64,000 nt of DNA from assembly GCA_902826695.1 (NCBI GenBank), contig CADEFU010000008.1, forward strand, positions 1-64,000, in the 5' to 3' direction. The notes under the pieces are model-generated. The model worked only from the letters and a program-made list of their open reading frames with translations. It had not been told where the DNA came from and did not search any database. Below, one piece after another: positions 5,610-22,750 of the stretch. How positions within the stretch are numbered: position 1 is the first letter of the stretch; each line of letters opens with the position of its first letter. This DNA comes from an uncultured Alphaproteobacteria bacterium. GTDB taxonomy: Bacteria; Pseudomonadota; Alphaproteobacteria; Micropepsales; Micropepsaceae. The position numbers and the translations under genes were made by a program.

Positions 5610-6011
5610 TCAGGCGATCGGGATGCGGCGGGGGCGGGCGTCTTCGATTTTCGGCAGGGTCAGCGTCAGGACGCCGTCTTCGAGTGCCGCGCTGATGCGT
5701 TTGGCGTCGATCTGGCTCGACAGGCTGAACGAGCGGGCGAAGTGGCCCACGTTGTATTCGCTGTAGAGGGGATCGAGCCCGTCATATTTCGAAAAGTCGA
5801 TCCGGCCTTCGATGCGCAGCAGATCGTTTTCGAGGTTGAGGTCCAGATCCTTCTTTTCGACGCCCGGAAGCTCCAGCACGACGGTCAGCGCTTCTTCGGT
5901 TTCGAAGATGTCGGCGACCGGCGTGAAGCTGCGCGCCGGGATCGTGCGTTCGCCGGTGGTTGCGACTTCCTTCTTTTCTTGCACGGTCAGGGGTTGAGAG
6001 GACTTGCTCAT
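5610..6011 (-). CDS. Hsp20/alpha-crystallin small heat-shock protein (distal gene)
   Basis: A 133-residue small heat-shock protein, an ATP-independent holdase. The alpha-crystallin domain runs from about residue 30 to 130: FTPVADIFET opens it, VLELPGVEKKDLDL is the typical beta3-beta4 region, and GVLTLTLPKIE is the family G-V-L-x-L-x-L-P signature. The N-terminal region is short and the usual C-terminal I-x-I is present as IPI. A GAGGAG ribosome site lies about 10 bases before the ATG. It is the last gene of the heat-shock operon, 24 bp after its Hsp20 paralogue. Two dissimilar Hsp20 proteins in one operon suggest hetero-oligomers, as is known for rhizobial class A and B proteins. Confidence 0.93.
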   Translation of the reverse strand: MSKSSQPLTVQEKKEVATTGERTIPARSFTPVADIFETEEALTVVLELPGVEKKDLDLNLENDLLRIEGRIDFSKYDGLDPLYSEYNVGHFARSFSLSSQIDAKRISAALEDGVLTLTLPKIEDARPRRIPIA

Positions 6012-6035
6012 GATCGTTCGTCTCCTCGCGTCGCG

Positions 6036-6461
6036 TTAGTTGATGGCAATGGTGCGCGGCTTGGCGCTTTCCGCACGCGGCAGATAGAGCGCAAGAACGC
6101 CGTCGCGGAACTCGGCTTTGATCCGGTCGGGGTCGACTTCGACGGGCAGTGTGATCGTGCGATCGAAGCGGCCCTCCGCGCGCTCGCGCCGGTGCAGGCT
6201 TGCGCGTTCGCCATAGGCGATCGTCTTGGTGCCCGAGACGCGCACGGTGTTGCCCTTGGCCTCGACCTTGAGGTCCGCCTTGTGCACGCCGGGCGCTTCG
6301 GCGATGACGACGATGTCGTCGCCTTTGGCGAAGACATTCAGCGGCGGGAAGGCGCCGCGGCCGGATGGCGACAGGTCGAACCAGCCGCTGTCGCGCAGGC
6401 TGTCGAGCGAGCGCTGGAAGTTGAGCATCGCCTCGAACGGATTGATGGAAAATAGAGCCAT
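6036..6461 (-). CDS. Hsp20/alpha-crystallin small heat-shock protein (proximal gene)
   Basis: A 141-residue small heat-shock protein. It opens MALFSINPFEAML, an N-terminal arm with hydrophobic side chains typical of IbpA-like proteins. The alpha-crystallin domain starts near PPLNVFAKGDD, includes VIAEAPGVHKADLKV, and ends with GVLALYLPRAESAKPRTIAIN, where IAI is the C-terminal anchoring motif. The frame stays open well upstream, but AAGGAG lies 10 bases before the ATG at 6461 and the extra upstream residues are Arg/Pro-rich and non-homologous, so I start here. It is preceded by two small coupled frames and followed by a second Hsp20. Confidence 0.93.
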   Translation of the reverse strand: MALFSINPFEAMLNFQRSLDSLRDSGWFDLSPSGRGAFPPLNVFAKGDDIVVIAEAPGVHKADLKVEAKGNTVRVSGTKTIAYGERASLHRRERAEGRFDRTITLPVEVDPDRIKAEFRDGVLALYLPRAESAKPRTIAIN

Positions 6462-6522
6462 GGGGTTGTTTCTCCTTATCTGCGATGTTTGTTGAACCGG
6501 CGCGCGTGCTTGCCCTTTGCGA

Positions 6523-6717
6523 TCAAAGCCCGGGGAAGACGCGCGGCCAACGCGGCGGCACCTCGGCCGTGACGGGCGGTTCGCCGGCCGTCCACCGCGA
6601 AGGGCCGGCTTGCGGCGGGGTTTCCTTCGCGGCGTCGCGCGTGCGGGCGGCAAGGCGCGCCCGCGGGAGAGGCGGAAGCGGGGCGGCTTCCGCCGTCGAT
6701 GCGGTCACGTCGATCAT
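6523..6717 (-). CDS. Small Pro/Arg-rich protein coupled to upstream membrane protein
   Basis: A 64-codon frame with a GGAG ribosome site nine bases before its ATG. The ATG overlaps the stop of the preceding gene (ATGA at 6714-6717), which argues for translational coupling and for reality of the frame. The product is rich in Ala, Pro and Arg, has no membrane segment and ends WPRVFPGL. I know no family. It sits in the heat-shock operon 61 bp upstream of the first Hsp20 gene. It could be a non-conserved spacer frame; conservation would decide. Confidence 0.45.
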   Translation of the reverse strand: MIDVTASTAEAAPLPPLPRARLAARTRDAAKETPPQAGPSRWTAGEPPVTAEVPPRWPRVFPGL

Positions 6718-8039: not shown

Positions 8040-9803
8040 ATGTCAGCGGACGCCGATCAACTGATCGACCTCATCGACGTGAAGGAGCGTTTGCGCCGAT
8101 TGTCCAAGGCGGAGCGGCAGGCGTTGGTGCTCGACCCGGCGGCGTTAGCGCGCGGCTATCACCGGCTGCGCGAGACGGCGCCGCGGCGGGCCCAAGGCTA
8201 TCTCTCGAAGAACCGCACCGGCGTGACGGCGAGTGGGGCTGCGAGCAATCGCATCGAGGAGCATTTGGCGGTGGCGCTGTTCAACCGCGGCGCGCTCATG
8301 CTGCCGGAAGAACCGCTGACGCTTCTCGACTATCAGTTCCCGTTGAAAGGGGTGCGGGCGGACAGCGGCGTCGGCAAGATCGATCTGTTGGGGCTTCGGC
8401 GCGACGGCTCGCTTGCGATTTTTGAGTTGAAGGTTGCGGACAATGCGGAAGACCGGCGCATCGCGTTGCTGGAAGGCTTGATCTATGCGGCGATTGTGGA
8501 GGCGAACATCGACGCGATCGCGGCGGAGTTTCGCGCGGGCTGCGGCCGGGAGATTGCGCGCGTCCGGCCGCATATCGTGATCGCGGCGCCGCCCGGTTAT
8601 TGGGCGAACGAAAAGCCGTTCCCCGATCTCGGCGCGTTTCACCGCTTGGTGCGCGAGACGGCGGTGGCCGTGGAGACGCCGATCCTCATCTGCCGCGTGG
8701 ACGATGCGGACGCTCTCGAGCTTGGGTTGAACGGGCGGCCGCCGCTGGTGCGGGGCCACGCGTACCTGTCGCCTGTCGCGGAACGCGCGCCGCATCGCGT
8801 GCCGCCGTCGTCGCCGGCGTACGACCTTTATCTGCAGGAGCAGGCGCGGCGCTTTTGGTCATACCGGCGCGCGGCGTTTGCGGGTGACGATTATCTCTTC
8901 GAGCCCGGCGCCGAAGGCGGCGTGCGGCCGCCCGTGTTTCGGCCCGAGCACGCCGCGCGCAATTTGATCGTGCCGCCAAGGGCGGACGACGTGGCGGCGT
9001 CGATCGTGTCTGCGATTCCGCCCGCGGCGCGGCATAGGCATTTTGCCTCGATGCGCAGTTCGCAAGCCCTGGCGCAATCCGTGTTTGGCGCGCTGTCCGC
9101 GCTCGGCCGATTGGACGTGCTGGCCGGGATCGAAGCGGAGGATGGCTATCCCGCGTTCTTCGCCGCAGCCGACGGCTTTGCCATGGCGTTCGAGCAGACC
9201 GTGGCGACGTTGGGCGAACTGCCCGGCCGGGAGACCTCTGTGGACGTGATGCTCTCCGGCCCTGCGCGCGTGGCCGTGGAAGTGAAGCTGGCGGAGAACG
9301 GGTTCGGCCGGTGTTCGCGGCCCGACATCAAGCCGGAGGCTGCGAATTTCACGCGCGACCATTGCGACGGCAGCTACACCCGGCAGCGCGAGCGCGCGAC
9401 GCGGTGCAGTTTGAGCGAGCGCGGGATCGGATACTGGCGGCATGTGCCGCAGCTGTTCGACTGGCCGGCGGAGGTGGACCACAGCCCCTGTCCGCTGGAC
9501 CTGACCTATCAGCTGGCGCGAAACGTGATGGCCGCTTGCGTGCGCGCGGATGGGGCGATCGAGACGCAGCGCGCGCACGCGCTTCTCGTCTATGACGCGC
9601 AAAACCCGGCGTTCCGGCCGGGCGGCGTGGCGGACGCGCAGTGGTGGGTGGCGGTACGCGCGCTGTGCCATCCGCGGCTGCTGCGCCGCGTGTCGTGGCA
9701 GCGGGTTGCGGCGCGGTTGGCGGAGGTTGGCGGGTTGCACTGGCAGGTTCGGGCGCTGGAGGAGAAGTATTCGATAGGGAAGTCTGCGGCTGCTTCCAGA
9801 TGA
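8040..9803 (+). CDS. Protein with two PD-(D/E)XK-like nuclease cores (PGN_0703-like)
   Basis: A 587-residue protein at the left edge of the defence island. Near the N-terminus, an acidic helix (RIEEHLAVAL, 71-80) is followed by GKIDLLG (D115) and LAIFELKVA (E129, K131), the D...E-x-K pattern of PD-(D/E)XK nucleases. A second core lies at 400-420: SVDVML (D402) then VAVEVKLAE (E414, K416). The C-terminal part, with RAHALLVYDAQNPAFRPGG, resembles as I recall it the PGN_0703-type putative restriction endonucleases. The start at 8040 was chosen over an upstream non-ATG start because the additional residues look non-coding. It is likely a restriction nuclease. Which core is active, or whether both are, is open. 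Confidence 0.7.
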   Translation: MSADADQLIDLIDVKERLRRLSKAERQALVLDPAALARGYHRLRETAPRRAQGYLSKNRTGVTASGAASNRIEEHLAVALFNRGALMLPEEPLTLLDYQFPLKGVRADSGVGKIDLLGLRRDGSLAIFELKVADNAEDRRIALLEGLIYAAIVEANIDAIAAEFRAGCGREIARVRPHIVIAAPPGYWANEKPFPDLGAFHRLVRETAVAVETPILICRVDDADALELGLNGRPPLVRGHAYLSPVAERAPHRVPPSSPAYDLYLQEQARRFWSYRRAAFAGDDYLFEPGAEGGVRPPVFRPEHAARNLIVPPRADDVAASIVSAIPPAARHRHFASMRSSQALAQSVFGALSALGRLDVLAGIEAEDGYPAFFAAADGFAMAFEQTVATLGELPGRETSVDVMLSGPARVAVEVKLAENGFGRCSRPDIKPEAANFTRDHCDGSYTRQRERATRCSLSERGIGYWRHVPQLFDWPAEVDHSPCPLDLTYQLARNVMAACVRADGAIETQRAHALLVYDAQNPAFRPGGVADAQWWVAVRALCHPRLLRRVSWQRVAARLAEVGGLHWQVRALEEKYSIGKSAAASR

Positions 9804-9901
9804 CGTCGCGGTGACGAGATGGGCAAAGAGGAGGGCATCTTTGAAAACCGAATGACGCGCGAGCGCAACTCATTGTCTTATGTGCGGAGGCCTAATCGTC
9901 G

Positions 9902-10348
9902 ATGGATCAGCTAAGCGCCGCCAAACGCTCGCGCCTTATGTCGAGAGTTCGCTCGCGCGATACAGAACCTGAGGTGGCGGTTCGGAAGACCGCGCATCGG
10001 CTTGGCTTGCGGTATTCGTTGCACCGTAGCGATCTGCCCGGCAAACCAGACATCGTCTTTAGTAGCCGAAATGTTGTCATCTTCGTTCATGGTTGTTTCT
10101 GGCACAAGCACTCCAAATGCAAGCGCGCAACCCTACCGAAGACCAGGCGAGCTTTCTGGAATGCGAAGCTCGCGCGCAACGTTGAGCGCGACGCGGCAAC
10201 AGTTCGCGCGCTGAGAGCGTTGGGTTGGAGGGTTTTCGTTGTCTGGTCCTGTCAGGTCAAGGAGCCTGCTTTGACGCGGCGACTTCGGCGCATTTTTGGT
10301 CTGCGAATCGGGAAAGCAACGCATTGCGCAAAGATAGCTAGTAGCTAA
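9902..10348 (+). CDS. vsr: Very short patch repair endonuclease Vsr
   Basis: A 148-residue Vsr-family endonuclease, which nicks 5' of the T in T:G mismatches produced by deamination of 5-methylcytosine. Diagnostic features are the opening R-S-R-L-M-S-R-V-R-S-R-D-T-E-P-E segment, GLRYSLHRSDLPGKPDIVF with the metal-binding Asp, VIFVHGCFWHKH with the zinc ligand residues, and WNAKLARNVERD. Vsr normally accompanies a cytosine-5 methyltransferase; here the methyltransferase is at 16508-17569, at the far end of the same island. The stop overlaps the stop of the convergent Z1 gene by four bases. Confidence 0.95.
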   Translation: MDQLSAAKRSRLMSRVRSRDTEPEVAVRKTAHRLGLRYSLHRSDLPGKPDIVFSSRNVVIFVHGCFWHKHSKCKRATLPKTRRAFWNAKLARNVERDAATVRALRALGWRVFVVWSCQVKEPALTRRLRRIFGLRIGKATHCAKIASS

Positions 10349-13185
10349 GCGTCAACTACGGCTTCTGGTGGTGCGTCTGCGCGGCGCACCGTGAAGGAAA
10401 GCGGTGTGCGGATATCATTATACGGAAACAGTAGCGTGAAGGCCATGGTCGGTACGTCGCGTGGGCCAAAGGCCTCCTGATCAGTTACCGCATAAAACAT
10501 CAATACACCACGACGGCGGCCGGTAAGCGTCGTCAGTTCCGGGTTCGCGGCAGCAAGGCTTTCTTGACCAGAGATGTGGCGCGCGAACTTTCGATGAATC
10601 GGATCATTGTATGTGTTGAAGCGATGCTCCTGCTCGACGTGGCGGGAGCGGTAGACGATGTCGAAGTCGGCGCCAGCGAGTTCGAACAAACCTTTGCGAC
10701 GCTCCGGTTTGATCCTCGGGCCAAGCAATAGCCAATCTGCTATTTGTGGATCGCCAGCATGCCCCTTCAAGAATTCGATCTGCAGCGCCATAGGATTGCC
10801 TAGTTTGCTCTCCTTCGTGTTGGGATTGAACCAGCGGTAGCGTTCAAGGAGCTTGATGATCTCCGCAGAACTGAGAGGCAAGGTAAGTGCGCGCATCGAA
10901 TGTTCGGCGGATTCAAGGTTGACGGCGGTTGCTGACTTGCCGGCGACGATGGAGCGCATCAGCATGATATTCTCATGCATGCGTTCAGAGCTAGTCGGCG
11001 CAAAGGTTGATTCAGCCAAGGTGCCGCCAAAATTACGCGAGATCAGCTTCGCGTTGCGCATCTTGTTGGCGGCGGTTGGTCGCAGCATGTGTTGGGGCAC
11101 GAGTGGCGCGATTTTGGCGGGCGTAATCTGCTGCCTCATGTCGGCATAGCGTTGCAGCTCTTGGCGAAAATACTCCTCGTCGCGGCAAATTGCGCCGAAT
11201 GCCTCATAGAGGTTGATACGTCGCTTACCTTTTCCGACAGGCTCGCTAGTGCCGATGAACAGTCGGACTAAATCACGATAGCCCCGACGAAAGCCAAACC
11301 AACGGCCCATCTGCATAAGCGTATCGCCCGCGCCTGCGCGGCGGCGATAATAACTAATGGTCAGTCCTTCCACCGTGTAGCCGCGCGAAAGTTTGGCGCC
11401 GCCGACAAGAATCTTCCATACTGAGCGCTTCTGGAAATCCGGTGTGTCTTTCTTGTTTTCGGTGTTCAAGACCAGAACCGCGTCGTGGGCTTCGCCAATC
11501 TTTTGTAGGCATTCGCCAAGGGCTTCTTCGAGCTCTTCGAAGTTTTTTGGGAAGGGAAGGCCGTCGCCGCGCTCGGCGTGAACACGCCGATAGTCATCTT
11601 CGAAGAGGCGATGAAGTCGGTCGAGTCCCTCACCACCGTCATAACCCGCGCGCGCGTAAGTTTCTCGTACCGTGCGTGCGAGAACTGTGTGATCGTCTTG
11701 GAACTGCGACAGGTGTGCGAGCATGGTGTGATGGCGGAACTTCAGTGCGGAATCGCTTGCCGCTCTGTAAAGCTTAAGCGCACCAGACAGGACGAAGGCA
11801 TCAATAGCCTTCGGCAAATTGTCTTGAACGTCATCGCCCCCTTCTACGCCACGGACGTAGTCGCGTTCGTTTGGGCCTGGTTCGCCAATTGGTGCTTCGA
11901 GATCGTAGAAGTCCGACACGCCCATATAATCTGCCGGACGTGGTAGCGAGATCAGAAAATCCTTCGGGAAAATGTCGGCATCGTCGGACGGGTCGATAAA
12001 GACGTTTGCGAAGGGCGTTGCGGTATAGCCGACATACTGTGCGCGCGGCAGCATGGCCAATAACTGGACGATTGCGTTGTTGGTGGCGGTGCGCTCGTCC
12101 GTGTCGAGCGGGCGAACATTTATTGAAGCTTGGTCGGATTCGTCGTCGATGATTAGTGAAGGAATATCCGAAAGTGGGACGCTTATTCCCTCACGCTCGA
12201 CATCGTGGAGGTCTTTTAAGAGCTTTTGTAGTACGCCGCTGTGTTTCTTTACGACTGCGATAAGGGTCTTGGTGCGCTGCAGGTTGCCGCGATCCCAGAA
12301 CGGCTTGGATGGATCGGGAGCCCTAAGCTCAAGCGCGGCTCGGCCGTACGCCAAGCTCTCATAGTCGTTTAGCGAGCCGGTTAGCCGATAGAAGTCAAAT
12401 GCACCTAGCTGACTGGGTCGTGCGCCATGCACGACGAATTCATCGTAGTCGGGATCAGTCTTGTATTCTACGCCAAGCAGTTCGCGCCCAATTAGCTCTT
12501 TGTCGAGTCGTCGTTGCGTTTGCGTGCGCAAAACATCCAACATGCCGCCCAGCACGATGATTAGTTTGTAACCGGCATCAGCTGCCTTAGCGATGACGCC
12601 GGTGAAGTTTGCCGTCTTACCGCTTTGAACATAGCCAACTACCAGGCCCTTCGATTGATAGGCTGCCTCTGCCGAGGGGTTGGCAAGCCTCTCAATGATG
12701 CTCTTGGTGCTTTCATCGAGTTCGATCAGGCTAGATTCGTGCCATCCTTGCTTGGCCAACTGTCGCCGATAACGCGACCAGTAGAAATTGTTAGCAGCAA
12801 TAATCTTTTCATCATACCACGGCGTATGTTCGTCTGCGATGACAGTGGCTCTGCCGACTTGATGAAACTGAAGTCTCTCGTCGCAGAAGTCGATCCAGTC
12901 TTGGTCGAAACCCAAACTCGCGTAGATCGCAGCGCGTCGCGCGGCTGTGTTGGGTGGGTTGACGGCCCATTCGGCGGTTTCATTATCCCACTGGGCAAGT
13001 TGGCGGCGCAGCAAACTCAAAGTGGGGTCGCCCGGATCGGCGGCTTTTAGGAAATTGAGTAGCAAACTGGGTGTGAACTCGCCGGGCCCCTGCCAATAGT
13101 CCTGCGCGTGGTAGGCAAGCGCTCGCGAAAGATTGCGTGGGCCTGCGACCATGCCAGAGAGGGCGGCATAGAGAAGTTCGAACAT
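10345..13185 (-). CDS. Z1 domain ATPase/helicase-like protein of restriction system
   Basis: A 946-residue Z1-family protein. Z1 proteins are superfamily-2-like ATPases found next to restriction-modification genes. The P-loop GYVQSGKT is at residues 184-191, a DEAD-box-like IIDDES at 345-350, YTATPFAN (motif III-like) at 387-394, and the conserved GGAKLSRGYTVEGLT and QMGRWFGFRRGY (motif VI-like arginines) near 595-636. It lies four bases after the DUF4420 gene, so these two and the GHKL ATPase form one operon. It probably remodels or translocates on DNA to bring the partner nuclease into action. Base composition is visibly less GC-rich than the flanking housekeeping genes, which suggests acquisition by transfer. 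Confidence 0.93.
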   Translation of the reverse strand: MFELLYAALSGMVAGPRNLSRALAYHAQDYWQGPGEFTPSLLLNFLKAADPGDPTLSLLRRQLAQWDNETAEWAVNPPNTAARRAAIYASLGFDQDWIDFCDERLQFHQVGRATVIADEHTPWYDEKIIAANNFYWSRYRRQLAKQGWHESSLIELDESTKSIIERLANPSAEAAYQSKGLVVGYVQSGKTANFTGVIAKAADAGYKLIIVLGGMLDVLRTQTQRRLDKELIGRELLGVEYKTDPDYDEFVVHGARPSQLGAFDFYRLTGSLNDYESLAYGRAALELRAPDPSKPFWDRGNLQRTKTLIAVVKKHSGVLQKLLKDLHDVEREGISVPLSDIPSLIIDDESDQASINVRPLDTDERTATNNAIVQLLAMLPRAQYVGYTATPFANVFIDPSDDADIFPKDFLISLPRPADYMGVSDFYDLEAPIGEPGPNERDYVRGVEGGDDVQDNLPKAIDAFVLSGALKLYRAASDSALKFRHHTMLAHLSQFQDDHTVLARTVRETYARAGYDGGEGLDRLHRLFEDDYRRVHAERGDGLPFPKNFEELEEALGECLQKIGEAHDAVLVLNTENKKDTPDFQKRSVWKILVGGAKLSRGYTVEGLTISYYRRRAGAGDTLMQMGRWFGFRRGYRDLVRLFIGTSEPVGKGKRRINLYEAFGAICRDEEYFRQELQRYADMRQQITPAKIAPLVPQHMLRPTAANKMRNAKLISRNFGGTLAESTFAPTSSERMHENIMLMRSIVAGKSATAVNLESAEHSMRALTLPLSSAEIIKLLERYRWFNPNTKESKLGNPMALQIEFLKGHAGDPQIADWLLLGPRIKPERRKGLFELAGADFDIVYRSRHVEQEHRFNTYNDPIHRKFARHISGQESLAAANPELTTLTGRRRGVLMFYAVTDQEAFGPRDVPTMAFTLLFPYNDIRTPLSFTVRRADAPPEAVVDA

Positions 13186-13189
13186 GATC

Positions 13190-14197
13190 CTAATCCTTGG
13201 GCAGGGTTACGACAAACATGTCCTCGAGCTGAGCACCGGTGCAGACTCGCCCTAAGCCTTCGACATCGATTGCATAAACAATGTGCCCCAAGCGCTCCGA
13301 TGGGAAGTCCGCGGCCAGCGTCGCAAGTGAGTTTCGGGTAATGCGTGGCACCCCAGGAGCGACTTCGATAAGCCTCGGCTCGGTTCTCAGCCGCCACCGC
13401 GTCGGATAAAGCTGAGCGTCGGCGCTTGACCATCCGACACGCTCGAGAAGGGAGTTTAACCTTTCGCGCGCACCTGCGACTGTCGCCATGAGTTGTTCCG
13501 AACGGGCAACTGTCTCACCGAGTGTTGAGCCGCCCGCACCCGCTGCAGCTAGTTGCAGCGACAGCAGGAAAAGCGTGCAGCCGGTGCTCGGCTCCAACTG
13601 CGTTGCACCGTTGATAAGATGGATACGGCGTGTGCCTCCGGTCGTCTTCACTTCAAGCTCGATGTTGCCAAAACGGAAGTCGTGAGCTTGTTGTGTTGGG
13701 CCGATCCATGCATCAAGCGCTTCAGCTGGCGCCCGTTGGGCAAGTTGTTCCAGGCACCAGAGCTCGCCAAAAAGACCGGCTTGGGTTTCGATAGACATGA
13801 GTGGTTTCCGGGACAGAAGCGATTGCCAGCGCGCTACCGCTTCGGCCAAGGCAATGCGCTCTTGACGCCCCTCACAGATCACTGCCGATACTACCTCAGC
13901 GACAAGGCCGAAAAAGTTCGCAAAAAGGGGGCGTGACGAAGTCGAAACTTCGATCATCCGCCTGCCTTCGATTATTCGCAGTGCCACGTCTATCTCGGCC
14001 GTTATCGGCGTGGGAACCGCGTCGCTTTCCGTGGCGAAACGTGCGCCTAGTTTTGTCGCACCAGACTCGACGAAGAGGCCGACAAAAGGTGCAGGTCGCA
14101 CCACGTAGGTGTGAGGCACGCCCCCTACTACATAATCGCGTTCGAACTCGGCCCAGTCTGGTAGAAGGAGGCGCGGTGTCTGTGAAGCACTGCTCAT
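13190..14197 (-). CDS. DUF4420 PD-(D/E)XK motif protein (putative restriction nuclease)
   Basis: A 335-residue DUF4420 protein. GLFGELWCLEQL at 141-152 supplies the leading Glu, HDFRFGNIELEVKTT supplies D173, E182 and K184, and GTRRIHLINGATQLEP follows as in this family. The catalytic residues are all present, so it is a good candidate for the cleaving subunit. Its ATG overlaps the stop of the upstream GHKL ATPase gene (14194-14197), and the Z1 gene starts four bases after its stop. The fixed order ATPase, DUF4420, Z1 indicates stoichiometric synthesis and probably a complex. Confidence 0.9.
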   Translation of the reverse strand: MSSASQTPRLLLPDWAEFERDYVVGGVPHTYVVRPAPFVGLFVESGATKLGARFATESDAVPTPITAEIDVALRIIEGRRMIEVSTSSRPLFANFFGLVAEVVSAVICEGRQERIALAEAVARWQSLLSRKPLMSIETQAGLFGELWCLEQLAQRAPAEALDAWIGPTQQAHDFRFGNIELEVKTTGGTRRIHLINGATQLEPSTGCTLFLLSLQLAAAGAGGSTLGETVARSEQLMATVAGARERLNSLLERVGWSSADAQLYPTRWRLRTEPRLIEVAPGVPRITRNSLATLAADFPSERLGHIVYAIDVEGLGRVCTGAQLEDMFVVTLPKD

Positions 14198-15690
14198 GGT
14201 TGTCGCCCTTTCACCACTTCGAGCAAAAGTGCGTTGATTTGGCGAATTTCCTCGCGCCTTTTAGGTGAGGTGCGGGTGCGCTCAAAATCGTTCTGTAGTA
14301 GTAGGAAAAGTAGCATCTTTACGATTGGAGCGTCTGCTCCTGACGCAGGATCTGCACCTAGGATCGCCTGGCGATGCAAGCGATTGAGGACGACTCGGCT
14401 TTGCGTCAAGTCAAGCTGGAAGACAAGTTCCTCATCGAGCGGCTCCCAGGCGAAGTTGATTTCTTCGGTTGGCTTATCCCCAGCCAGCTTTTGGGCAGCG
14501 AGCCGGCGCACGCGTGCGGGAACGCCCTCTCCTGGTACCGAGATAGTGCGTGATGTTTCCACGTCGCGTTTACGAACTGCCCGCAAGTAGTGGCGCGCAG
14601 CATCGAGATAACCTTCGAAGTTAAGTGTGCCGTCGCTGGCCTGCAAAAATGCCTGCGCTTGTGCTGCCGACACCTGGAGCGAAGATTTTTTGACGTCGAC
14701 GTTGAGTCCAGTGGCGGGTAATTCGACGCTTACACGTGCCAGCGCAAGTTCCGGATCGGGATCGTTGCGGACTACCCCATTCCAGTCACCGCCCTGAATG
14801 AGACGATCATTCCGGTAGAAATAGAACCCTTGAAACTCACTGCCGCGCTTGCCACCAAGTAGAAAGTTGTCCGAAGCAGCGCCATCCGGCCAAATATGAC
14901 AAACCAGGCTGAGGTCGCCGACATTCGGCAAATTTGTCCTCAGGATCTTTGGAAAACCATCGACTCCCGATTGGGCATAGCCGAACGGATCGAGCGCTCG
15001 CACCTTTCGCGGCATCGCCAAACTGCGTTGTTCATGGCGGACAATGAGTGAGATTGTGAGCGCGCCACTTTGTAAGAATCGATGGAAGGTTAGTCCCAGG
15101 TGTGCGTCGAGACGTGCCATAATCGCTTGCAGGAAGCGGTCTAGATCGTGCCCTTCTTCTCCGACGGCCAGACGTTCAAGCCGCTCCCACAGAACGAGTG
15201 TGCCCGAGGCGGGCGCGCCGCTTCGGAAGCACAATTTATCGAACGCGACATTGCATTGGTTTGGATCAAGTATGTCGCAGTTCCAATCGTTGTCGATTGA
15301 TTCCACCGACCATCGGCCTCCTACCGTTTGACCGTTGCGTCGGCTGATTACAGAAAGCGTTCGGCATTGGCTGAAGGACGCCGATTTCAATCCCGTTCCG
15401 TATGCGCCCAGTTCTTGCGGCGCGTGGTCGAGCCGTCCGGCAAATTGCATGCCTCGGCACAATGCGTCATAGTCCATGCCGCAGCCGTCGTCGGCGATCG
15501 TGACTGCGGTCAACACCGAGTTGTCGCGGTAAAATGCGACCTCGACGTGACGTGCGCCCGCATCGATGGAGTTGTCGATGATGTCGGCCAGCGCTTCGGG
15601 CAATTCATAGCCGATCCGCGACAAAGCGCGCACAGCGCCGCGGCCTTCAGGGGGAAGAGATCGCGAGGCAATTTTGGATAGAGTTAACAC
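14194..15690 (-). CDS. GHKL (MutL/MORC-type) ATPase of restriction system
   Basis: A 498-residue protein with a GHKL (HSP90/MutL/histidine-kinase fold) ATPase domain in the first 180 residues: N box EALADIIDNSIDA (33-44, with Asn40 for Mg), G1 box DDGCGM (67-72) and G2 box LGAYGTGLKSAS (94-105). A MutL S5-like middle region and an uncharacterised C-terminal part follow. The start is GTG at 15690 with GGAGG seven bases upstream. Comparative genomics by Iyer, Abhiman and Aravind described MutL/MORC-like ATPases in restriction-modification operons with Z1 and REase genes, which this arrangement matches. Nucleotide-dependent dimer clamping on DNA is the likely activity. It is first gene of the operon and is divergently arranged with the 235-residue protein gene. 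Confidence 0.92.
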   Translation of the reverse strand: MLTLSKIASRSLPPEGRGAVRALSRIGYELPEALADIIDNSIDAGARHVEVAFYRDNSVLTAVTIADDGCGMDYDALCRGMQFAGRLDHAPQELGAYGTGLKSASFSQCRTLSVISRRNGQTVGGRWSVESIDNDWNCDILDPNQCNVAFDKLCFRSGAPASGTLVLWERLERLAVGEEGHDLDRFLQAIMARLDAHLGLTFHRFLQSGALTISLIVRHEQRSLAMPRKVRALDPFGYAQSGVDGFPKILRTNLPNVGDLSLVCHIWPDGAASDNFLLGGKRGSEFQGFYFYRNDRLIQGGDWNGVVRNDPDPELALARVSVELPATGLNVDVKKSSLQVSAAQAQAFLQASDGTLNFEGYLDAARHYLRAVRKRDVETSRTISVPGEGVPARVRRLAAQKLAGDKPTEEINFAWEPLDEELVFQLDLTQSRVVLNRLHRQAILGADPASGADAPIVKMLLFLLLQNDFERTRTSPKRREEIRQINALLLEVVKGRQP

Positions 15691-15735
15691 GAAGAGCCCT
15701 CCGCAAATCGCCGACCACTTCGGATAAAATAGCGA

Positions 15736-16443
15736 ATGGCAAGACGATCACAACCTGCCGACCCCAAGGATCTCGCACGTACCCTTGAAGTGTTGGTGAA
15801 GCAATTGCACGCTCGTCTCGAAAATCCCGAGATAGGCGAGCGGGTTGCGCACTTGGTTGCCATACACCGGGTGCTCCGCGACCTTGGGGCAGGACTTGCA
15901 GTGGGCCTAAGTGCGGAGCCTTCGACATCGGGGCGCGCGCGTGTGCTGGCGTACCTTCGGCTTCAAGTCGGGCGCATCGTTCATACTGAGGAGTTGATGA
16001 TCGTTGCGGGCATTGGCGACTATGCCCGCCGCATTCGCGAACTCAGGACTCAAGAAGGCTGGCCGATCATTTCAGGAGCAGCGATGCGGGATGTTTCTAA
16101 AGATTTGGTCCGGCGAGGGCGGAGCGCCGAGGCGCCACCGCAAATGGTGGTTGAAGAGTACATACTTGTCGAGGACGCTCGCGACGAGGATGCGATCGCT
16201 CGTTGGCGCCGCGCAGGTGTGCTGCGCGGGCAAAGGCGACCAATCTTGGCTCGCATTACCGACTATCTCGAAGCTGCGGCCGGTAGACGTGTCACTGCTG
16301 AAGAGCTTCGCTATGTCGCCCACGATGAGAGCGACTGGATAGACGCTTTGGCTGCGCTCGCAGACCGGGGGTGTCAAATTCTTGGATACGCCGTCCCCGA
16401 TCCCTCATTGCCCTATGGGATATATGTATTGCCTGTGCGTTGA
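15736..16443 (+). CDS. Unknown protein with duplicated winged-helix-like unit in defence island
   Basis: A 235-residue protein I cannot assign. Residues 67-113 and 169-217 align: Y-L at the same place, then G-R with V soon after, E-E-L, V-A, a helix rich in Ile/Leu/Arg, and G-x-x-I. This looks like two copies of a small helix-turn-helix or winged-helix unit. From memory the first unit plus the VEEYILVEDARDEDAIARW stretch resembles the N-terminal region of some HNH restriction proteins, but no HNH motif is present. Its start is only 45 bp from the divergent ATPase start. A GATAAAAT -10-like box (15723-15730) lies just before the ATG with no Shine-Dalgarno, so a leaderless mRNA is possible. It could be a regulator or a specificity subunit. 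Confidence 0.7.
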   Translation: MARRSQPADPKDLARTLEVLVKQLHARLENPEIGERVAHLVAIHRVLRDLGAGLAVGLSAEPSTSGRARVLAYLRLQVGRIVHTEELMIVAGIGDYARRIRELRTQEGWPIISGAAMRDVSKDLVRRGRSAEAPPQMVVEEYILVEDARDEDAIARWRRAGVLRGQRRPILARITDYLEAAAGRRVTAEELRYVAHDESDWIDALAALADRGCQILGYAVPDPSLPYGIYVLPVR

Positions 16444-16507
16444 CAGTAACGCCGCCGTGGTCGCCCGCATGCGATGCCCCGTCGGCAGGGCTGGATACTC
16501 CTGCGTG

Positions 16508-17569
16508 TTACGCAGACCTTGCCAGTGGAATCATCGCTGCTCGCACTGATCGGGCAATGGCTCCGGCAAAAGGTGGTGGCACGGCGTTGCCAATTTGGCG
16601 GGCTATTTCGATCTTTGTACCATGGAACCGGAAGTCGTCTGGAAACGCCATTAATCGTGCCGCCTCCCTGTGCGTTATTGGTCGGTGCTGCACAGGGTGC
16701 AAGTAGCGGCCCTTTTCTGGCTTAAAGAACTCCGTTCTGATTGTTACCGACGGCCGGTCCCACCATAGCCGCCCAAAAAGATCCGTTCCCCCCGATGTTT
16801 TCCGAAGCCAACAGTCCGGTGTGATTTCTGGAGCCCGACGTTGGAGATCGAATCGGTTCCCTCCTGTCGGAACGGCTCGGTATCTCCTGGTGCTCAACTC
16901 TGTTGGTTTCCGTCCGAAATGGAGACCAAGAACCCTGTGAGTTCCTATCTCCGTGCCGATCGGTTCTGGAAGGTCCGAAATTGCGTCTCTAACTGTACGC
17001 CATCGGGGCAAGTTCGTCTTCAACTTAGGATCCGCGTGAGAAGGCTTAGGCATCTCCACCGGTCGGCGAAGTCCTCGCCAGCCGAGAACGATCGTTCTCT
17101 TTCGGGACTGTGGGACGCCATAGTCAGCCGCGTTCAAGATCGATGCTTCAGTCTCATATCCGAGCCTTTTGGCTCTCAATCTGATCGACTGAAGTTCGGG
17201 CGACCGATACAACTCCGCTACATTCTCCATGATGAATACGCGAGCGTTAGATCGGTCCGCGATTTCCAGGTAGGGTTCCCATAGAGCTCGGCGCGAGTCT
17301 CCCTTTCGCTGTCTATTAAGCAGACTGAACCCTTGGCACGGCGGTCCGCCGATCACCACGTCCGCATTGGGAACATCACCGGACTGGAGCCAATCCTCAA
17401 TGTCGGCACAGATTGCGCTCCCGCCCAGATTTGCTGCGTGCGTGGCTACTGACGCTTCGTCATTGTCCAAGGCAAGGACGGGCTGGAAGCCACCCCCGAA
17501 TTGCCGATCGACGAGGCCGAGCGACATGCCGCCCGCGCCGCAAAAGAGGTCAATAAATCGTAGCTTCAT
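16508..17569 (-). CDS. DNA (cytosine-5-)-methyltransferase
   Basis: A 353-residue C5-cytosine methyltransferase. Motif I is FIDLFCGAGGMSLG (5-18), motif IV GGPPCQGFS with catalytic Cys78, motif VI MENVAEL (114-120), motif VIII QSRKRT, and motif X near IGNAVPPPFA at the end. The region between motifs VIII and IX is the target-recognition domain; the target cannot be read from sequence. The ATG at 17569 follows a GGGA stretch; an in-frame GTG at 17584 is an alternative. It is the presumed protective enzyme of the island and the partner of Vsr. It is transcribed towards the 235-residue protein gene and is not in the ATPase operon. Confidence 0.95.
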   Translation of the reverse strand: MKLRFIDLFCGAGGMSLGLVDRQFGGGFQPVLALDNDEASVATHAANLGGSAICADIEDWLQSGDVPNADVVIGGPPCQGFSLLNRQRKGDSRRALWEPYLEIADRSNARVFIMENVAELYRSPELQSIRLRAKRLGYETEASILNAADYGVPQSRKRTIVLGWRGLRRPVEMPKPSHADPKLKTNLPRWRTVRDAISDLPEPIGTEIGTHRVLGLHFGRKPTELSTRRYRAVPTGGNRFDLQRRAPEITPDCWLRKTSGGTDLFGRLWWDRPSVTIRTEFFKPEKGRYLHPVQHRPITHREAARLMAFPDDFRFHGTKIEIARQIGNAVPPPFAGAIARSVRAAMIPLARSA

Positions 17570-17684
17570 TGTAGATCCCGTCACACGAATCTAAGTGTTC
17601 ACTTTTTGTACCGCGGAAGCAATCTCTCATTTGGCCCTCGTCCACAGGCAATGTTTCGCTATCCTGTCCAAGCAAGCCTCAGGT

Positions 17685-18003
17685 CTACCGCTGCGGCGCT
17701 GCTGCCACAAACAGCAACGCCGTCTCGATGTCGCCGTAACCGTAGATCTTCATCGCCCAGTACGACGGCGGGCGTTCGCTTTGGTAGGGCAGGCCCGCGC
17801 GCAGAAGGGCGTCTTCGTCCGTGCGCACCACGAGTTTGATCGCGACGGCGCGCGGTTGAATCTCCACGCTCCAGAAATTGTCCGGCGTCTCCACGAACAG
17901 GCGCGGGTTCGTCTGGCGCTTCAGCGCGCCGTCGTGCGTCGCGCGGATGCGGGCGATGAGGGCGCGGGCCACGCGCTCCATCTCGCTGCCCAGTTGCGCA
18001 CAC
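17685..18003 (-). pseudogene. Truncated copy of the gene at 18937-19644
   Basis: The minus-strand translation from the breakpoint near 18003 to 17685 (SEMERVARALIARIRAT onwards) matches the C-terminal half of the 235-residue protein encoded at 18937-19644, with scattered substitutions. The match ends abruptly inside the codons for the Gln-Leu-Gly-Ser-Glu stretch. The N-terminal half is absent, replaced by a palindromic repeat and the toxin-antitoxin genes. No start site of its own is evident, so I treat it as a remnant. Confidence 0.7.
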
Positions 18004-18008
18004 TTCCT

Positions 18009-18936: not shown

Positions 18937-19644
18937 CTACGCGTCCTTCTGCGGCGGTTTGCTTATCGCCAGAAACCGCAGCGCCTCCTCGATGTAGCCG
19001 TAACCGTAGACCTTCATCATCCAGTACGACGGCGGGCGTTCGCTGTGAACGGGCAGGCCCGCGCGCAGAAGGGCATATTCGTCCGTGCGCACCACCAGTT
19101 TGATCGCGCCGGCGCGCGGTTGAATCTCCACGCTCCAGAAATTGTCGGGCGTCTCCACGAACAGGCGCGGGTTCGTCTGGCGCTTCAGCCGGCCTTCGTA
19201 GGTCGCGCGGATGCGGGCGATGAGGGCGCGGGCCACGCGCTCCATCTCGCTGCCCAGTTGCGCGCACTCGGCCACGAACGCTGCGTCGTCGTTGGTCGCG
19301 GCGGCGTCGGTTGGCGTTTGATCGGCTGCGGGCGCGGTGTTGGGCGCGGCTGGCGCTGGGCCCGCGGGCGGGGTCTGCGCAGCGCTCGCGCGGGCCAAGG
19401 GTGCTGCCGCGGCCGTCACGCTGAGGAAGATCGCTCTCTCGCCTGCGCCCAACGCCACCACGCTCACGCCGTCGAACGGCGCCCGCAGCTCCGCCCCGTT
19501 CCACGCCGGGGCGGTGAGCATCACCACATGCGGCCCGCTACTCAGCAACGGCGCGCCGGGCAGGCGCCGCGCCTCTGCTTCCGACAGCGTGCCGGTCCAT
19601 ACGCCGTCGTCCAAGGCGCGCGCGGGGCCGAATGAGATTTGCAT
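18937..19644 (-). CDS. Uncharacterised protein, intact paralogue of truncated copy
   Basis: A 235-residue protein. Residues 1-80 form a compact mixed domain without signal peptide, residues 80-125 are an Ala/Pro/Thr-rich linker, and residues 125-232 form the conserved part with FVAECAQLGSEMERVARALI, NPRLFVETPDNFWSVEIQPR and PPSYWMMKVYGYG. That conserved part is what remains of the copy at 17685-18003. I do not recognise the family. It faces the toxin gene convergently 12 bp away. The direct repetition across the toxin-antitoxin genes suggests that tandem copies once existed and the module landed in one of them. Confidence 0.65.
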   Translation of the reverse strand: MQISFGPARALDDGVWTGTLSEAEARRLPGAPLLSSGPHVVMLTAPAWNGAELRAPFDGVSVVALGAGERAIFLSVTAAAAPLARASAAQTPPAGPAPAAPNTAPAADQTPTDAAATNDDAAFVAECAQLGSEMERVARALIARIRATYEGRLKRQTNPRLFVETPDNFWSVEIQPRAGAIKLVVRTDEYALLRAGLPVHSERPPSYWMMKVYGYGYIEEALRFLAISKPPQKDA

Positions 19645-21200: not shown

Positions 21201-21562
21201 TCGGCCTGTGACGGGGTGCGCGCGCGCGCCCTAAGCCTCCAGACCCATCACCCATAGCCGCATCATTCTACCTTATGGTGCGACAATATTGTTCGCATTT
21301 TGTTCTTGTATTTTTCGGCGATTTCGGCGACATTCGGCGCTGTTGTTGGGTAGTTGGGCGACGTGCGCAAGGGCGGCTGCGGCCGGCCTCACGGCCCACG
21401 CGCCGCGCGGCTTTCTTGCGGTGTGGTCCCAGCGTGGCTAGTCCGCGGACACTATAGCGGTACTTCTGACACCTGTATTTCGCCTAAGTTAATCATTCTA
21501 TTATAGTATTGTCGTCTTACGCACCGGACATTCCGGCGGACATTTTGGCGGACACCACTCCC
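21201..21562. other. Intergenic region upstream of the Fic gene
   Basis: It contains copy 2 of the 97-bp repeat and, from about 21440, an AT-rich stretch with TATAGT at 21502-21507 that can serve as a -10 box for the Fic gene. I see no gene in it. Confidence 0.55.
21262..21358 (+). repeat. 97-bp duplicated segment with LexA-like box, copy 2
   Basis: Gap-free partner of 20050-20146. GTTC, seven bases, GTTC is kept at 21291-21305 although one of the seven spacer bases differs from copy 1. It lies about 250 bp upstream of the Fic gene. Confidence 0.8.
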
Positions 21563-22750
21563 ATGGATCGCGGTGAACCCATCGGCTTGATGGAACCCCT
21601 CATCGTCGGCGAAAGCTCGCCGCGGCGCGGGGCGCTCACCGATCTTGCCGTCGAACTCGCGGCGAAATCCGCAGGCTTCCGACGCAGCCTGCCTGCGGGC
21701 GTGCAAGCGGCGCTCGCCGATCTCGTGCGGGCCATGAACTGCTACTATTCGAACCTGATCGAGGGACATAATACTCACCCGGTCGAGATCGAACGCGCGC
21801 TTGCGGGCGACTACAGTGCCGATCCGCGAAAACGCGACCTCCAGCTCGAGGCCAAAGCCCATATCGCCGTGCAGGCCTGGCTCGACGGCGGCGCGCTCGG
21901 CCGCACCGCGGCCACGGCGGAGGGCGTGTGCGCGATCCATCGTACGTTCTGCGCGCTGTTGCCGGACGCGTTGCTCTGGGTCGAAGATCCGGACAGCGGG
22001 CAGCGGTTGCGTGTCGTTCCCGGCGCATTTCGCGAAACGGACGTCAAGGTCGGCCTGCACGTGCCGGTCAGCGCCGGCGCCGTGCCGCGTTTCCTCCACC
22101 GCTTCGAACAGGCCTACGCCAATCTCGGCAAAACCGACGCCATTCTCGCCGCCGCAGCGGCGCATCACCGGTTGCTTTGGATTCATCCGTTTCTCGACGG
22201 CAACGGCCGCGTCGCACGCCTTCTGTCGCACGCCATGTTGCGCGACGCGCTCGACACCGGCGCTCTATGGTCGGCGGCGCGCGGTCTCGCGCGCAACGCC
22301 GCCACCTACAAAAGCCTGCTCGCGGCGGCAGACTTGCCGCGGCGGAACGACCTCGATGGCCGCGGCAGTTTGAGCGAAGAGGCTCTCACCGAGTTCACCC
22401 ACTTCTTCCTCACAACCTGTCTCGACCAGGTGACGTTCATGGAAAGCCTGGTGGAACCTGACCGCCTGCGCGCGCGCATTCTATTGTGGACGGCCGAAGA
22501 GGTGCACTTGGGTCACCTTCCGCAAAAGGCCTCGGCGGTGCTGGAGGCGGTGCTCTATCGCGGCGAACTTCCCCGCGGCGACGTCGCCGCTCTCATCGGC
22601 GCCAGCGATCGTCACGCGCGGCGGCTCACCGCCGCGCTGCTCGACAAAGGCATCCTCACGTCCACGGCTGCCGGTGCGCCGCTGCGCCTCGTCTTCCCCG
22701 CAACCCTCGCCGGGCGCTGGATGCCTGGCCTGTTTCCAGAGCAACCCTGA
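21563..22750 (+). CDS. Fic family protein (AMPylator-type) with N-terminal inhibitory motif
   Basis: A 395-residue Fic protein. The catalytic motif HPFLDGNGRVAR begins at His208; Fic enzymes transfer AMP from ATP to a hydroxyl side chain of a target protein. The self-inhibitory helix motif S-x-x-x-E-G is present N-terminally as SNLIEG (Ser63, Glu67), so this is a class II Fic protein with intramolecular control. The C-terminal 90 residues (AVLYRGELPRGDVAALIG and onward) form a winged helix. I start at the ATG at 21563; a longer frame from a TTG at 21509 would start next to the apparent -10 box and has no ribosome site. The target is unknown. It lies just outside the repeat-rich accessory region. 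Confidence 0.88.
   Translation: MDRGEPIGLMEPLIVGESSPRRGALTDLAVELAAKSAGFRRSLPAGVQAALADLVRAMNCYYSNLIEGHNTHPVEIERALAGDYSADPRKRDLQLEAKAHIAVQAWLDGGALGRTAATAEGVCAIHRTFCALLPDALLWVEDPDSGQRLRVVPGAFRETDVKVGLHVPVSAGAVPRFLHRFEQAYANLGKTDAILAAAAAHHRLLWIHPFLDGNGRVARLLSHAMLRDALDTGALWSAARGLARNAATYKSLLAAADLPRRNDLDGRGSLSEEALTEFTHFFLTTCLDQVTFMESLVEPDRLRARILLWTAEEVHLGHLPQKASAVLEAVLYRGELPRGDVAALIGASDRHARRLTAALLDKGILTSTAAGAPLRLVFPATLAGRWMPGLFPEQP

What the first reader, a model, noticed from the sequence alone, without database searches (positions are those of the whole stretch)
8040..17569. Composite restriction-like island: GHKL ATPase, Z1, DUF4420, Vsr, C5-methyltransferase and a double-core nuclease
The sequence shows two independent PD-(D/E)XK candidates (a two-core protein at 8040-9803 and DUF4420 at 13190-14197), a Z1 ATPase, a GHKL ATPase, Vsr and a cytosine-5 methyltransferase within 9.5 kb, with no integrase. 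GHKL plus Z1 plus a REase plus a C5-methyltransferase is a described comparative-genomic association (MutL/MORC homologues in restriction-modification systems), and I do not claim the base module is new. What stands out is the combination with the double-core protein at the edge and the unknown 235-residue protein divergent from the operon. Whether all act as one system is inference.
Basis: partly seen in the sequence, partly recalled or inferred. Interest (0 to 1): 0.75.

Follow-up and report, generated by a model that had tools for sequence, protein, structure and literature searches.

The report
MORC restriction island with nuclease-less reader
This is a horizontally acquired bacterial restriction-modification island; its "unknown" 235-residue protein turns out to be the DNA-reading half of a known kind of restriction enzyme without its cutting half, and it recurs next to the same MORC-ATPase/nuclease/Z1-motor genes in three other genomes, so it is probably the part that tells that machine which DNA to attack.

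Summary
The genes are real and intact, but the island is 9902-17584, not 8040-17569. The double-core nuclease at the edge is a bystander: GC3 is 0.83 against 0.57-0.61 inside, and an 82% identical homologue sits elsewhere in a congener with no Z1 gene found. The rest is a MORC (GHKL) - DUF4420 (PD-(D/E)XK) - Z1 operon with a C5-methyltransferase and Vsr: a relative of MZA and of the MORC restriction operons described in 2008, without AIPR and with its own gene order. The "unknown" 235-aa protein is the two-winged-helix DNA-binding part of a type II restriction enzyme (wHTH-wHTH-HNH, paired elsewhere with the same methyltransferase family), lacking the HNH nuclease. It is not a fresh truncation: three other genomes carry an HNH-less copy in the same divergent place beside GHKL-DUF4420-Z1. 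The four form one clade (100/100) and share a conserved first and a lost second recognition helix. None of about 26 loci with only the HNH form has the trio in the DNA held; two of the four genomes have no HNH form at all. Best reading (inferred): specificity subunit of an ATP-dependent restriction complex. A regulator is the main rival. New variant of a known kind.

The parts
9902..10348 (+). Vsr: very short patch repair endonuclease (corrects T:G at deaminated 5-methylcytosine)
   Evidence: TIGR00632 144.3 bits, cut-off 97.85; FVHGCFWH motif
10345..13185 (-). Z1 protein: SF2-type ATPase/motor with Z1 domain
   Evidence: PF10593 6e-53; Walker A GYVQSGKT, IIDDE, DTLMQMGRWFG, the DThhQXuRhFG motif of Iyer 2008
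13190..14197 (-). DUF4420: PD-(D/E)XK nuclease, candidate cutting subunit
   Evidence: PF14390 3.7e-42; GE - D - ExK motif intact and conserved in four loci
14194..15690 (-). GHKL ATPase of MORC type; first gene of the operon (overlaps DUF4420 by 4 bp)
   Evidence: PF13589 2.4e-24; MORC motif GFYFYRNDRLI at residue 288; best PDB sequence matches MORC2 and MutL
15691..15735 (.). 45-bp divergent intergenic region between GHKL and wHTH2 (77-105 bp in the sister loci)
   Evidence: no shared operator word found
15736..16443 (+). HNH-less double winged-helix protein (wHTH2): DNA-binding half of a type II restriction enzyme, candidate specificity subunit
   Evidence: 38% and 36% identical over 99% of its length to wHTH-wHTH-HNH enzymes; recurs in L111, L131, L132; trees; AF2 model pLDDT 89 with winged-helix matches
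15928..16077 (+). wHTH-1 of the above (aa 65-114), recognition helix ARRIRELR retained
   Evidence: 40 of 50 columns invariant in the four stand-alone copies
16246..16440 (+). wHTH-2 region of the above (aa 171-235), recognition helix lost (WIDALAAL instead of EWARRxRELRTEEGW)
   Evidence: 15 of 65 columns invariant; helix kept in the HNH copies, lost in the four stand-alones
16508..17584 (-). C5-cytosine DNA methyltransferase, convergent with wHTH2
   Evidence: TIGR00675 158.5 bits, cut-off 100.65; motifs I, IV, VI, VIII, X present; 63-71% identical to the methyltransferases beside wHTH2(-HNH) genes elsewhere

Best explanation
An ATP-dependent, MORC-type restriction-modification island. Shown: GHKL(MORC)-DUF4420-Z1 form a tight operon; a C5-methyltransferase and Vsr accompany it; divergent from the operon is a protein made of the two winged-helix domains of the type II restriction enzyme that elsewhere partners this same methyltransferase family, without the HNH nuclease domain. 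Inferred: the methyltransferase protects the host's sites; the wHTH2 protein reads the corresponding unmethylated sequence (first winged helix, perhaps as a dimer) and recruits or triggers the Z1 motor and the MORC clamp; DUF4420 cuts. Vsr repairs the mutations that 5-methylcytosine causes. So a type II enzyme's DNA reader, copied and stripped of its own nuclease, serves as a separate specificity subunit.
For: (1) Four loci in four genera have the HNH-less wHTH2 in the same divergent place beside GHKL-DUF4420-Z1 and a C5-methyltransferase; none has AIPR. (2) About 26 loci with only the HNH-fused form, from plasmids, genomes and viral contigs, show no trio in the DNA held. Fisher p is 0.029 on four against four complete loci and 0.0003 against 14, a rough dereplicated count that I chose by eye. 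(3) Stand-alone and HNH copies are each one side of a branch with 100/100 support (9 and 30 sequences), so the form is old, not a local deletion. (4) dN/dS is about 0.2 in the closest pairs (saturated dS in the others) and 40 of 50 columns of wHTH-1 are invariant. (5) L111 and L132 carry both forms, so the stand-alone is not simply the same gene decayed; L131 and the window genome show no HNH form anywhere, so any restriction there must come from the trio. (6) The trio's own trees put this subtype in one clade apart from the AIPR-type systems (Z1 and GHKL, SH-aLRT 100). (7) Mechanistic precedent: in CglI/NgoAVII a sequence-specific B3 protein triggers ATP hydrolysis by a Z1-containing SF2 ATPase, and cleavage needs both (PMC4267653).
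Against: No DNA binding, complex formation or restriction is shown. The loss of the second recognition helix means that the stand-alone cannot read DNA as the HNH enzyme does; it may read a half-site or something else. Its divergent position fits a regulator just as well. The distant trio in Arthrobacter p2MP (same gene order) has no wHTH2 annotated near it. Only four loci, three of them from one family that I sampled on purpose.
Confidence: 0.5

Rival explanations
1. The wHTH2 protein is a transcriptional regulator (controller-like) of the divergent GHKL-DUF4420-Z1 operon and perhaps of the methyltransferase, recruited from a restriction enzyme's DNA-binding domain.
For: Divergent from the operon in all four loci over a short shared intergenic region (45-105 bp). 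One winged helix kept, the second lost; most structural matches are winged-helix regulators such as BirA and PhoP. Restriction systems often have controllers (general knowledge).
Against: No sequence word of 6 bases or more is shared by the four intergenic regions (weak test, short regions). The domain is cognate to the same methyltransferase family's restriction enzyme, which a mere regulator would not need.
Confidence: 0.27
2. The wHTH2 protein is a decoy or sensor of the restriction enzyme: it mimics the HNH enzyme, and the MORC-Z1-DUF4420 trio acts when the partner restriction system is blocked (guard or back-up role).
For: L111 and L132 carry both the HNH enzyme and the HNH-less mimic beside the trio.
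Against: Window and L131 genomes show no HNH form at all, so nothing would be guarded there.
Confidence: 0.1
3. A decaying type II restriction system: the HNH nuclease was lost and the wHTH2 remainder is a passenger next to an unrelated trio.
For: Exact loss of the nuclease domain; degenerate second winged helix in the window copy.
Against: The same HNH-less form occurs in four genomes as one clade with a conserved first winged helix and dN/dS about 0.2 in the closest pairs; two loci hold both forms.
Confidence: 0.06
4. One reading: one composite system that includes the double-core nuclease at 8040-9803.
For: Adjacency; it is a predicted nuclease of a restriction-associated Pfam family.
Against: Host-like GC3 of 0.83 against 0.57-0.61; homologue in G005 in another context in a genome without a Z1 match; absent from the three sister loci.
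Confidence: 0.03

Closest known systems
MORC/paraMORC restriction-modification operons, third type (Iyer, Abhiman and Aravind 2008, PMC2292703)
   Same: GHKL ATPase with the MORC motif, SF2 helicase with DThhQXuRhFG, RE-fold protein with E-D-ExK, cytosine methylase and Vsr.
   Different: The parts of that paper I read do not describe a nuclease-less wHTH2 partner; they do mention VP1/RAV (B3) DNA-binding proteins in some operons of another type.
MZA system (MzaABCDE; PADLOC and NCBIfam models)
   Same: GHKL, Z1 and DUF4420 proteins match MzaB, MzaC and MzaD.
   Different: All far below the NCBIfam cut-offs (143.7 of 850, 276.7 of 1500, 81.5 of 420 bits); no AIPR (MzaE) and no sigma factor (MzaA) among the genes here; gene order GHKL-DUF4420-Z1 instead of GHKL-Z1-DUF4420-AIPR.
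Predicted Z1 + PD-(D/E)XK + C5-methyltransferase system, type I (Miller et al. 2022, PMC9523054)
   Same: The three core genes and the association with repair endonucleases.
   Different: Its three additional genes are named only in a figure and a table I could not read, so identity with this subtype cannot be decided.
wHTH-wHTH-HNH type II restriction-modification (Sphingomonas and Pandoraea plasmids, prophages; PHROG 119)
   Same: Same methyltransferase family (63-66% identity) and the same double winged-helix architecture.
   Different: Here the HNH nuclease domain is absent and the trio is present.
CglI / NgoAVII stress-sensitive restriction systems (PMC4267653)
   Same: C5-methyltransferase plus a DNA-reading protein plus a Z1-containing SF2 ATPase.

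Membership tests
MZA (MzaABCDE) | GHKL ATPase MzaB, Z1 protein MzaC, DUF4420 MzaD at equivalog level | tested here: not met
   Homologous, but 143.7, 276.7 and 81.5 bits against NCBIfam cut-offs of 850, 1500 and 420
MZA (MzaABCDE) | AIPR protein MzaE in the operon | tested here: not met
   No AIPR match among the island and neighbouring ORFs scanned; also absent from L111, L131 and L132
MZA (MzaABCDE) | Sigma-factor-like MzaA | tested here: not met
   No sigma-70 domain among the island and neighbouring ORFs scanned, whereas the Thalassospira system L119 has one
MORC restriction operons, third type (Iyer 2008) | GHKL ATPase with the MORC-specific motif GhXhhpXXRhl | tested here: met
   GFYFYRNDRLI at residue 288; 29 of 2000 shuffles carry such a motif by chance
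MORC restriction operons, third type (Iyer 2008) | SF2 helicase with DThhQXuRhFG motif | tested here: met
   DTLMQMGRWFG at residue 621
MORC restriction operons, third type (Iyer 2008) | RE-fold protein with E-D-ExK | tested here: met
   DUF4420, motif intact
MORC restriction operons, third type (Iyer 2008) | Cytosine methylase and/or Vsr nearby (frequent, not obligatory) | tested here: met
Type II wHTH-wHTH-HNH restriction-modification | Cognate C5-methyltransferase | tested here: met
   63-71% identity to those beside wHTH2(-HNH) genes; one side of a branch, SH-aLRT 92
Type II wHTH-wHTH-HNH restriction-modification | HNH nuclease domain on the wHTH2 protein | tested here: not met
   Window copy ends before the HNH; no second copy in the genome
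CglI/NgoAVII-type restriction | PLD-B3 R-protein | tested here: not met
   No such domain in the island proteins
Miller 2022 type I system | Three specific additional genes | not testable with these tools
   Listed only in a figure and a supplementary table
REase-ARP PF22558 (edge gene) | Match above gathering score | tested here: met
   66 bits against 27, residues 329-577

The most novel reading that the evidence does not exclude
Restriction by a MORC-Z1-DUF4420 machine is aimed by an interchangeable DNA-reading module taken from an ordinary type II restriction enzyme: gene duplication and loss of the nuclease turned a self-contained enzyme into a stand-alone specificity subunit. This would explain how at least one branch of the MORC/MZA-like systems chooses its targets and couples to a methyltransferase.
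Probability: 0.45. Interest if true: 0.72.

Novelty: new variant of a known kind. Interest (0 to 1): 0.58.

Why it matters
How MORC/MZA-like defence systems recognise foreign DNA is, as far as I could find, unsettled. Here the candidate reader is a small protein whose relatives include complete type II enzymes with the same methyltransferase family, so its target can be found simply (methylome of the host or of the cloned methyltransferase) and the aiming hypothesis tested with one purified protein. The case is also a clear example of a restriction enzyme's reading and cutting functions being separated in evolution, and it links prokaryotic MORC proteins directly to a sequence-specific DNA reader.

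Tried and rejected
Rejected: the edge gene as a part (GC3, independent homologue in G005, absence from sister loci). Rejected: fresh truncation of the 235-aa gene; at first I read the 16444-16508 stretch as a possible out-of-frame HNH remnant, but the same end point in four genomes makes that unnecessary. Led nowhere: the search for related loci of the window wHTH2 alone, or of the four stand-alone copies, in viral contigs, and tblastn against phages; only an alignment with HNH forms found the viral relatives. The GHKL scan of genome contigs gave only distant hits apart from Vibrio halioticoli. A structure of the single sequence was useless (pLDDT 37); with 17 HNH relatives it rose to 89. Foldseek gave no match at E <= 0.001; VIA-align 2 gave winged-helix matches at Z 6-7.5, in the range where only a common fold may be meant. 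Search for a shared operator in the four intergenic regions: nothing above chance. Analogy to L117 (stand-alone EcoRII-N beside a GHKL gene): real as a stand-alone reader, but it is not homologous to the N-domain of the EcoRII-C enzyme in that locus, so it is weak support only. Papers on an MZA mechanism or on REase-ARP: none found in the library.
Full report
WHAT IS THERE. The window is part of a 4.3-Mb genome (G000, 99.7% complete). GC falls from about 0.67 to 0.56 at about 9.8 kb and stays low to about 18 kb. Genes inside: Vsr 9902-10348 (+); Z1 protein 10345-13185 (-), DUF4420 13190-14197 (-) and GHKL 14194-15690 (-), which overlap by 4 bp or lie 4 bp apart and so look like one operon read GHKL-DUF4420-Z1; a 235-aa ORF 15736-16443 (+), divergent from GHKL; a C5-methyltransferase 16508-17584 (-). 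All catalytic motifs looked for are intact. The GHKL protein carries the motif that Iyer et al. gave as specific to the MORC family (GFYFYRNDRLI; definition), and its nearest PDB sequences are MORC2, MORC4 and MutL. It is therefore a prokaryotic MORC by that criterion; the motif has about a 1.5% chance of turning up in a shuffled copy.

THE EDGE GENE IS A BYSTANDER. The double-core protein at 8040-9803 has a restriction-associated C-terminal half (PF22558) and two plausible PD-(D/E)XK cores. Its GC3 is 0.83, like the genes around the island (0.73-0.86), against 0.57-0.61 for the six island genes. In 80 relatives it is found in one other genome, a congener (G005, 82% identity, dN/dS about 0.2), in a different neighbourhood (L018), in a genome with no match to the Z1 protein. 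A distant genome has only the C-terminal half. None of the three sister systems has it. It is a working gene by its dN/dS, but nothing ties it to this system.

THE 235-AA PROTEIN. tblastn against plasmids found two matches over its full length: Sphingomonas (P0001, 319 aa) and Pandoraea (in L051). Both have two winged-helix domains followed by an HNH nuclease, and both lie beside Vsr and a C5-methyltransferase 66% and 63% identical to that of the window: ordinary type II systems. The window protein aligns from its first residue through the second winged helix and stops there. A predicted structure built with 17 HNH relatives has mean pLDDT 89 and shows the helical N-terminus and winged helices; the first resembles the BirA and other winged-helix domains (Z 6-7.5), which supports the fold, not a function.

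IT RECURS, AND ONLY WITH THE TRIO. A scan for DUF4420 in 398 genomes of the phylum and a family-wide scan with the wHTH2 profile gave three more loci. L111 (G657): Z1, DUF4420 and GHKL on the minus strand, then the HNH-less wHTH2, the methyltransferase, a separate wHTH2-HNH and Vsr on the plus strand. L132 (G1072): the same; its Z1 gene is cut by the contig end. L131 (G879): the same without the wHTH2-HNH. Identity of the window to L111: Z1 59%, GHKL 58.5%, DUF4420 48%, wHTH2 51%, methyltransferase 71%, Vsr 51%. No AIPR gene is present in any of them. The loci with only the HNH-fused form are L050, L051, L144, L145, L133 (contig edge, so the trio could lie outside) and 22 viral-contig loci, several near-identical. 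None shows the trio or an HNH-less copy in the DNA held. The G879 and window genomes show no HNH form anywhere.

OLD AND UNDER SELECTION. With 9 and with 30 sequences, stand-alone and HNH copies are each one side of a branch, support 100/100. The helix EWARRxRELRTEEGW of the second winged helix is kept, with small variations, in the 26 HNH proteins aligned and lost in all four stand-alones (WIDALAAL, WTDAVTEL, WVAGVADL, WTAAMTGL), whereas the first (ARRIRELR or PRRIRELR) is kept in all. In the four stand-alones 40 of 50 columns of the first winged helix are invariant, against 15 of 65 for the second. dN/dS is 0.18-0.24 for the pairs in which dS is not fully saturated.

A SEPARATE SUBTYPE OF THE TRIO. 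In nearly all other DUF4420 loci examined the order is GHKL-Z1-DUF4420, mostly followed by AIPR (the MZA arrangement). The order GHKL-DUF4420-Z1 without AIPR occurs in the four wHTH2 loci and in Arthrobacter plasmid p2MP (L052). In quick trees of Z1 and of GHKL these loci form one clade (SH-aLRT 100); the p2MP branch is long, so its exact place is unsure. p2MP has a related methyltransferase (43%) but no wHTH2 annotated nearby.

HOW IT PROBABLY WORKS (inferred). The methyltransferase marks the host's sites and Vsr mends the mutations that follow. The wHTH2 protein, whose first winged helix is almost the same as that of the type II enzymes with this methyltransferase family, reads the unmethylated site. 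With its second reading helix lost and its nuclease absent, it must act through partners: the adjacent operon offers an ATP-driven motor (Z1 protein), a MORC-type clamp and a PD-(D/E)XK nuclease. The nearest biochemical precedent is CglI/NgoAVII, in which a DNA-reading protein triggers a Z1-containing ATPase and cleavage needs both (PMC4267653); Iyer et al. proposed that MORCs in such operons loop DNA between recognition and cleavage sites. The main rival is that wHTH2 regulates the divergent operon; the sequence evidence does not exclude it.

NOVELTY. The base module is described (PMC2292703, PMC9523054). I found no description of an HNH-less type II reader as a conserved member of it (the library misses most subscription journals). 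Hence: new variant of a known kind.

LIMITS. Four loci only, three from one family that was searched because the first was there. The Fisher value of 0.0003 uses an approximate count of 14 independent HNH-only loci that I set by eye; the strict version with four complete non-viral loci gives 0.029. Viral loci hold at most 8 kb of flank. Gene labels in the sister loci rest on phmmer against reference proteins, not on annotation. No experiment.

Noticed in passing
window 17704-18004 and 18968-19268: Direct repeat of 301 bp, 92% identical, at the right border of the island: a partial copy of the gene at 18937-19644. It may be connected with how the island arrived.
   Followed up: partly
L170 6729-8888 and L171 3-2192 (viral contigs): Single proteins of about 720-730 aa in which the C5-methyltransferase is fused to the wHTH2 (and, in L170 by profile match, HNH) part: a one-gene restriction-modification system in putative prophages.
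   Followed up: partly
L149-L173 (viral contigs): The wHTH2-HNH plus C5-methyltransferase pair is common in viral contigs (PHROG 119), so prophages are probable carriers of this type II system.
   Followed up: partly
L117 9576-10004: Agrobacterium plasmid locus with a stand-alone EcoRII-N domain beside a GHKL gene and a DEAD helicase, and a separate EcoRII-C enzyme with an unrelated N-domain: another nuclease-less reader next to a MORC-type ATPase.
   Followed up: partly
L052 6618-9908: Arthrobacter p2MP trio with the same gene order has an extra 1096-aa sacsin-like protein before the GHKL gene; it might take the place of the wHTH2 protein.
   Followed up: no
L053 7491-8072 and L107 7413-7961: A conserved protein of about 190 aa without a Pfam match lies between the methyltransferase and Vsr in GHKL-Z1-DUF4420 loci; a candidate for another specificity factor.
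   Followed up: partly
window 5610-6653 and 21509-22750: Two Hsp20 genes and a Fic-domain protein flank the island region.
   Followed up: no
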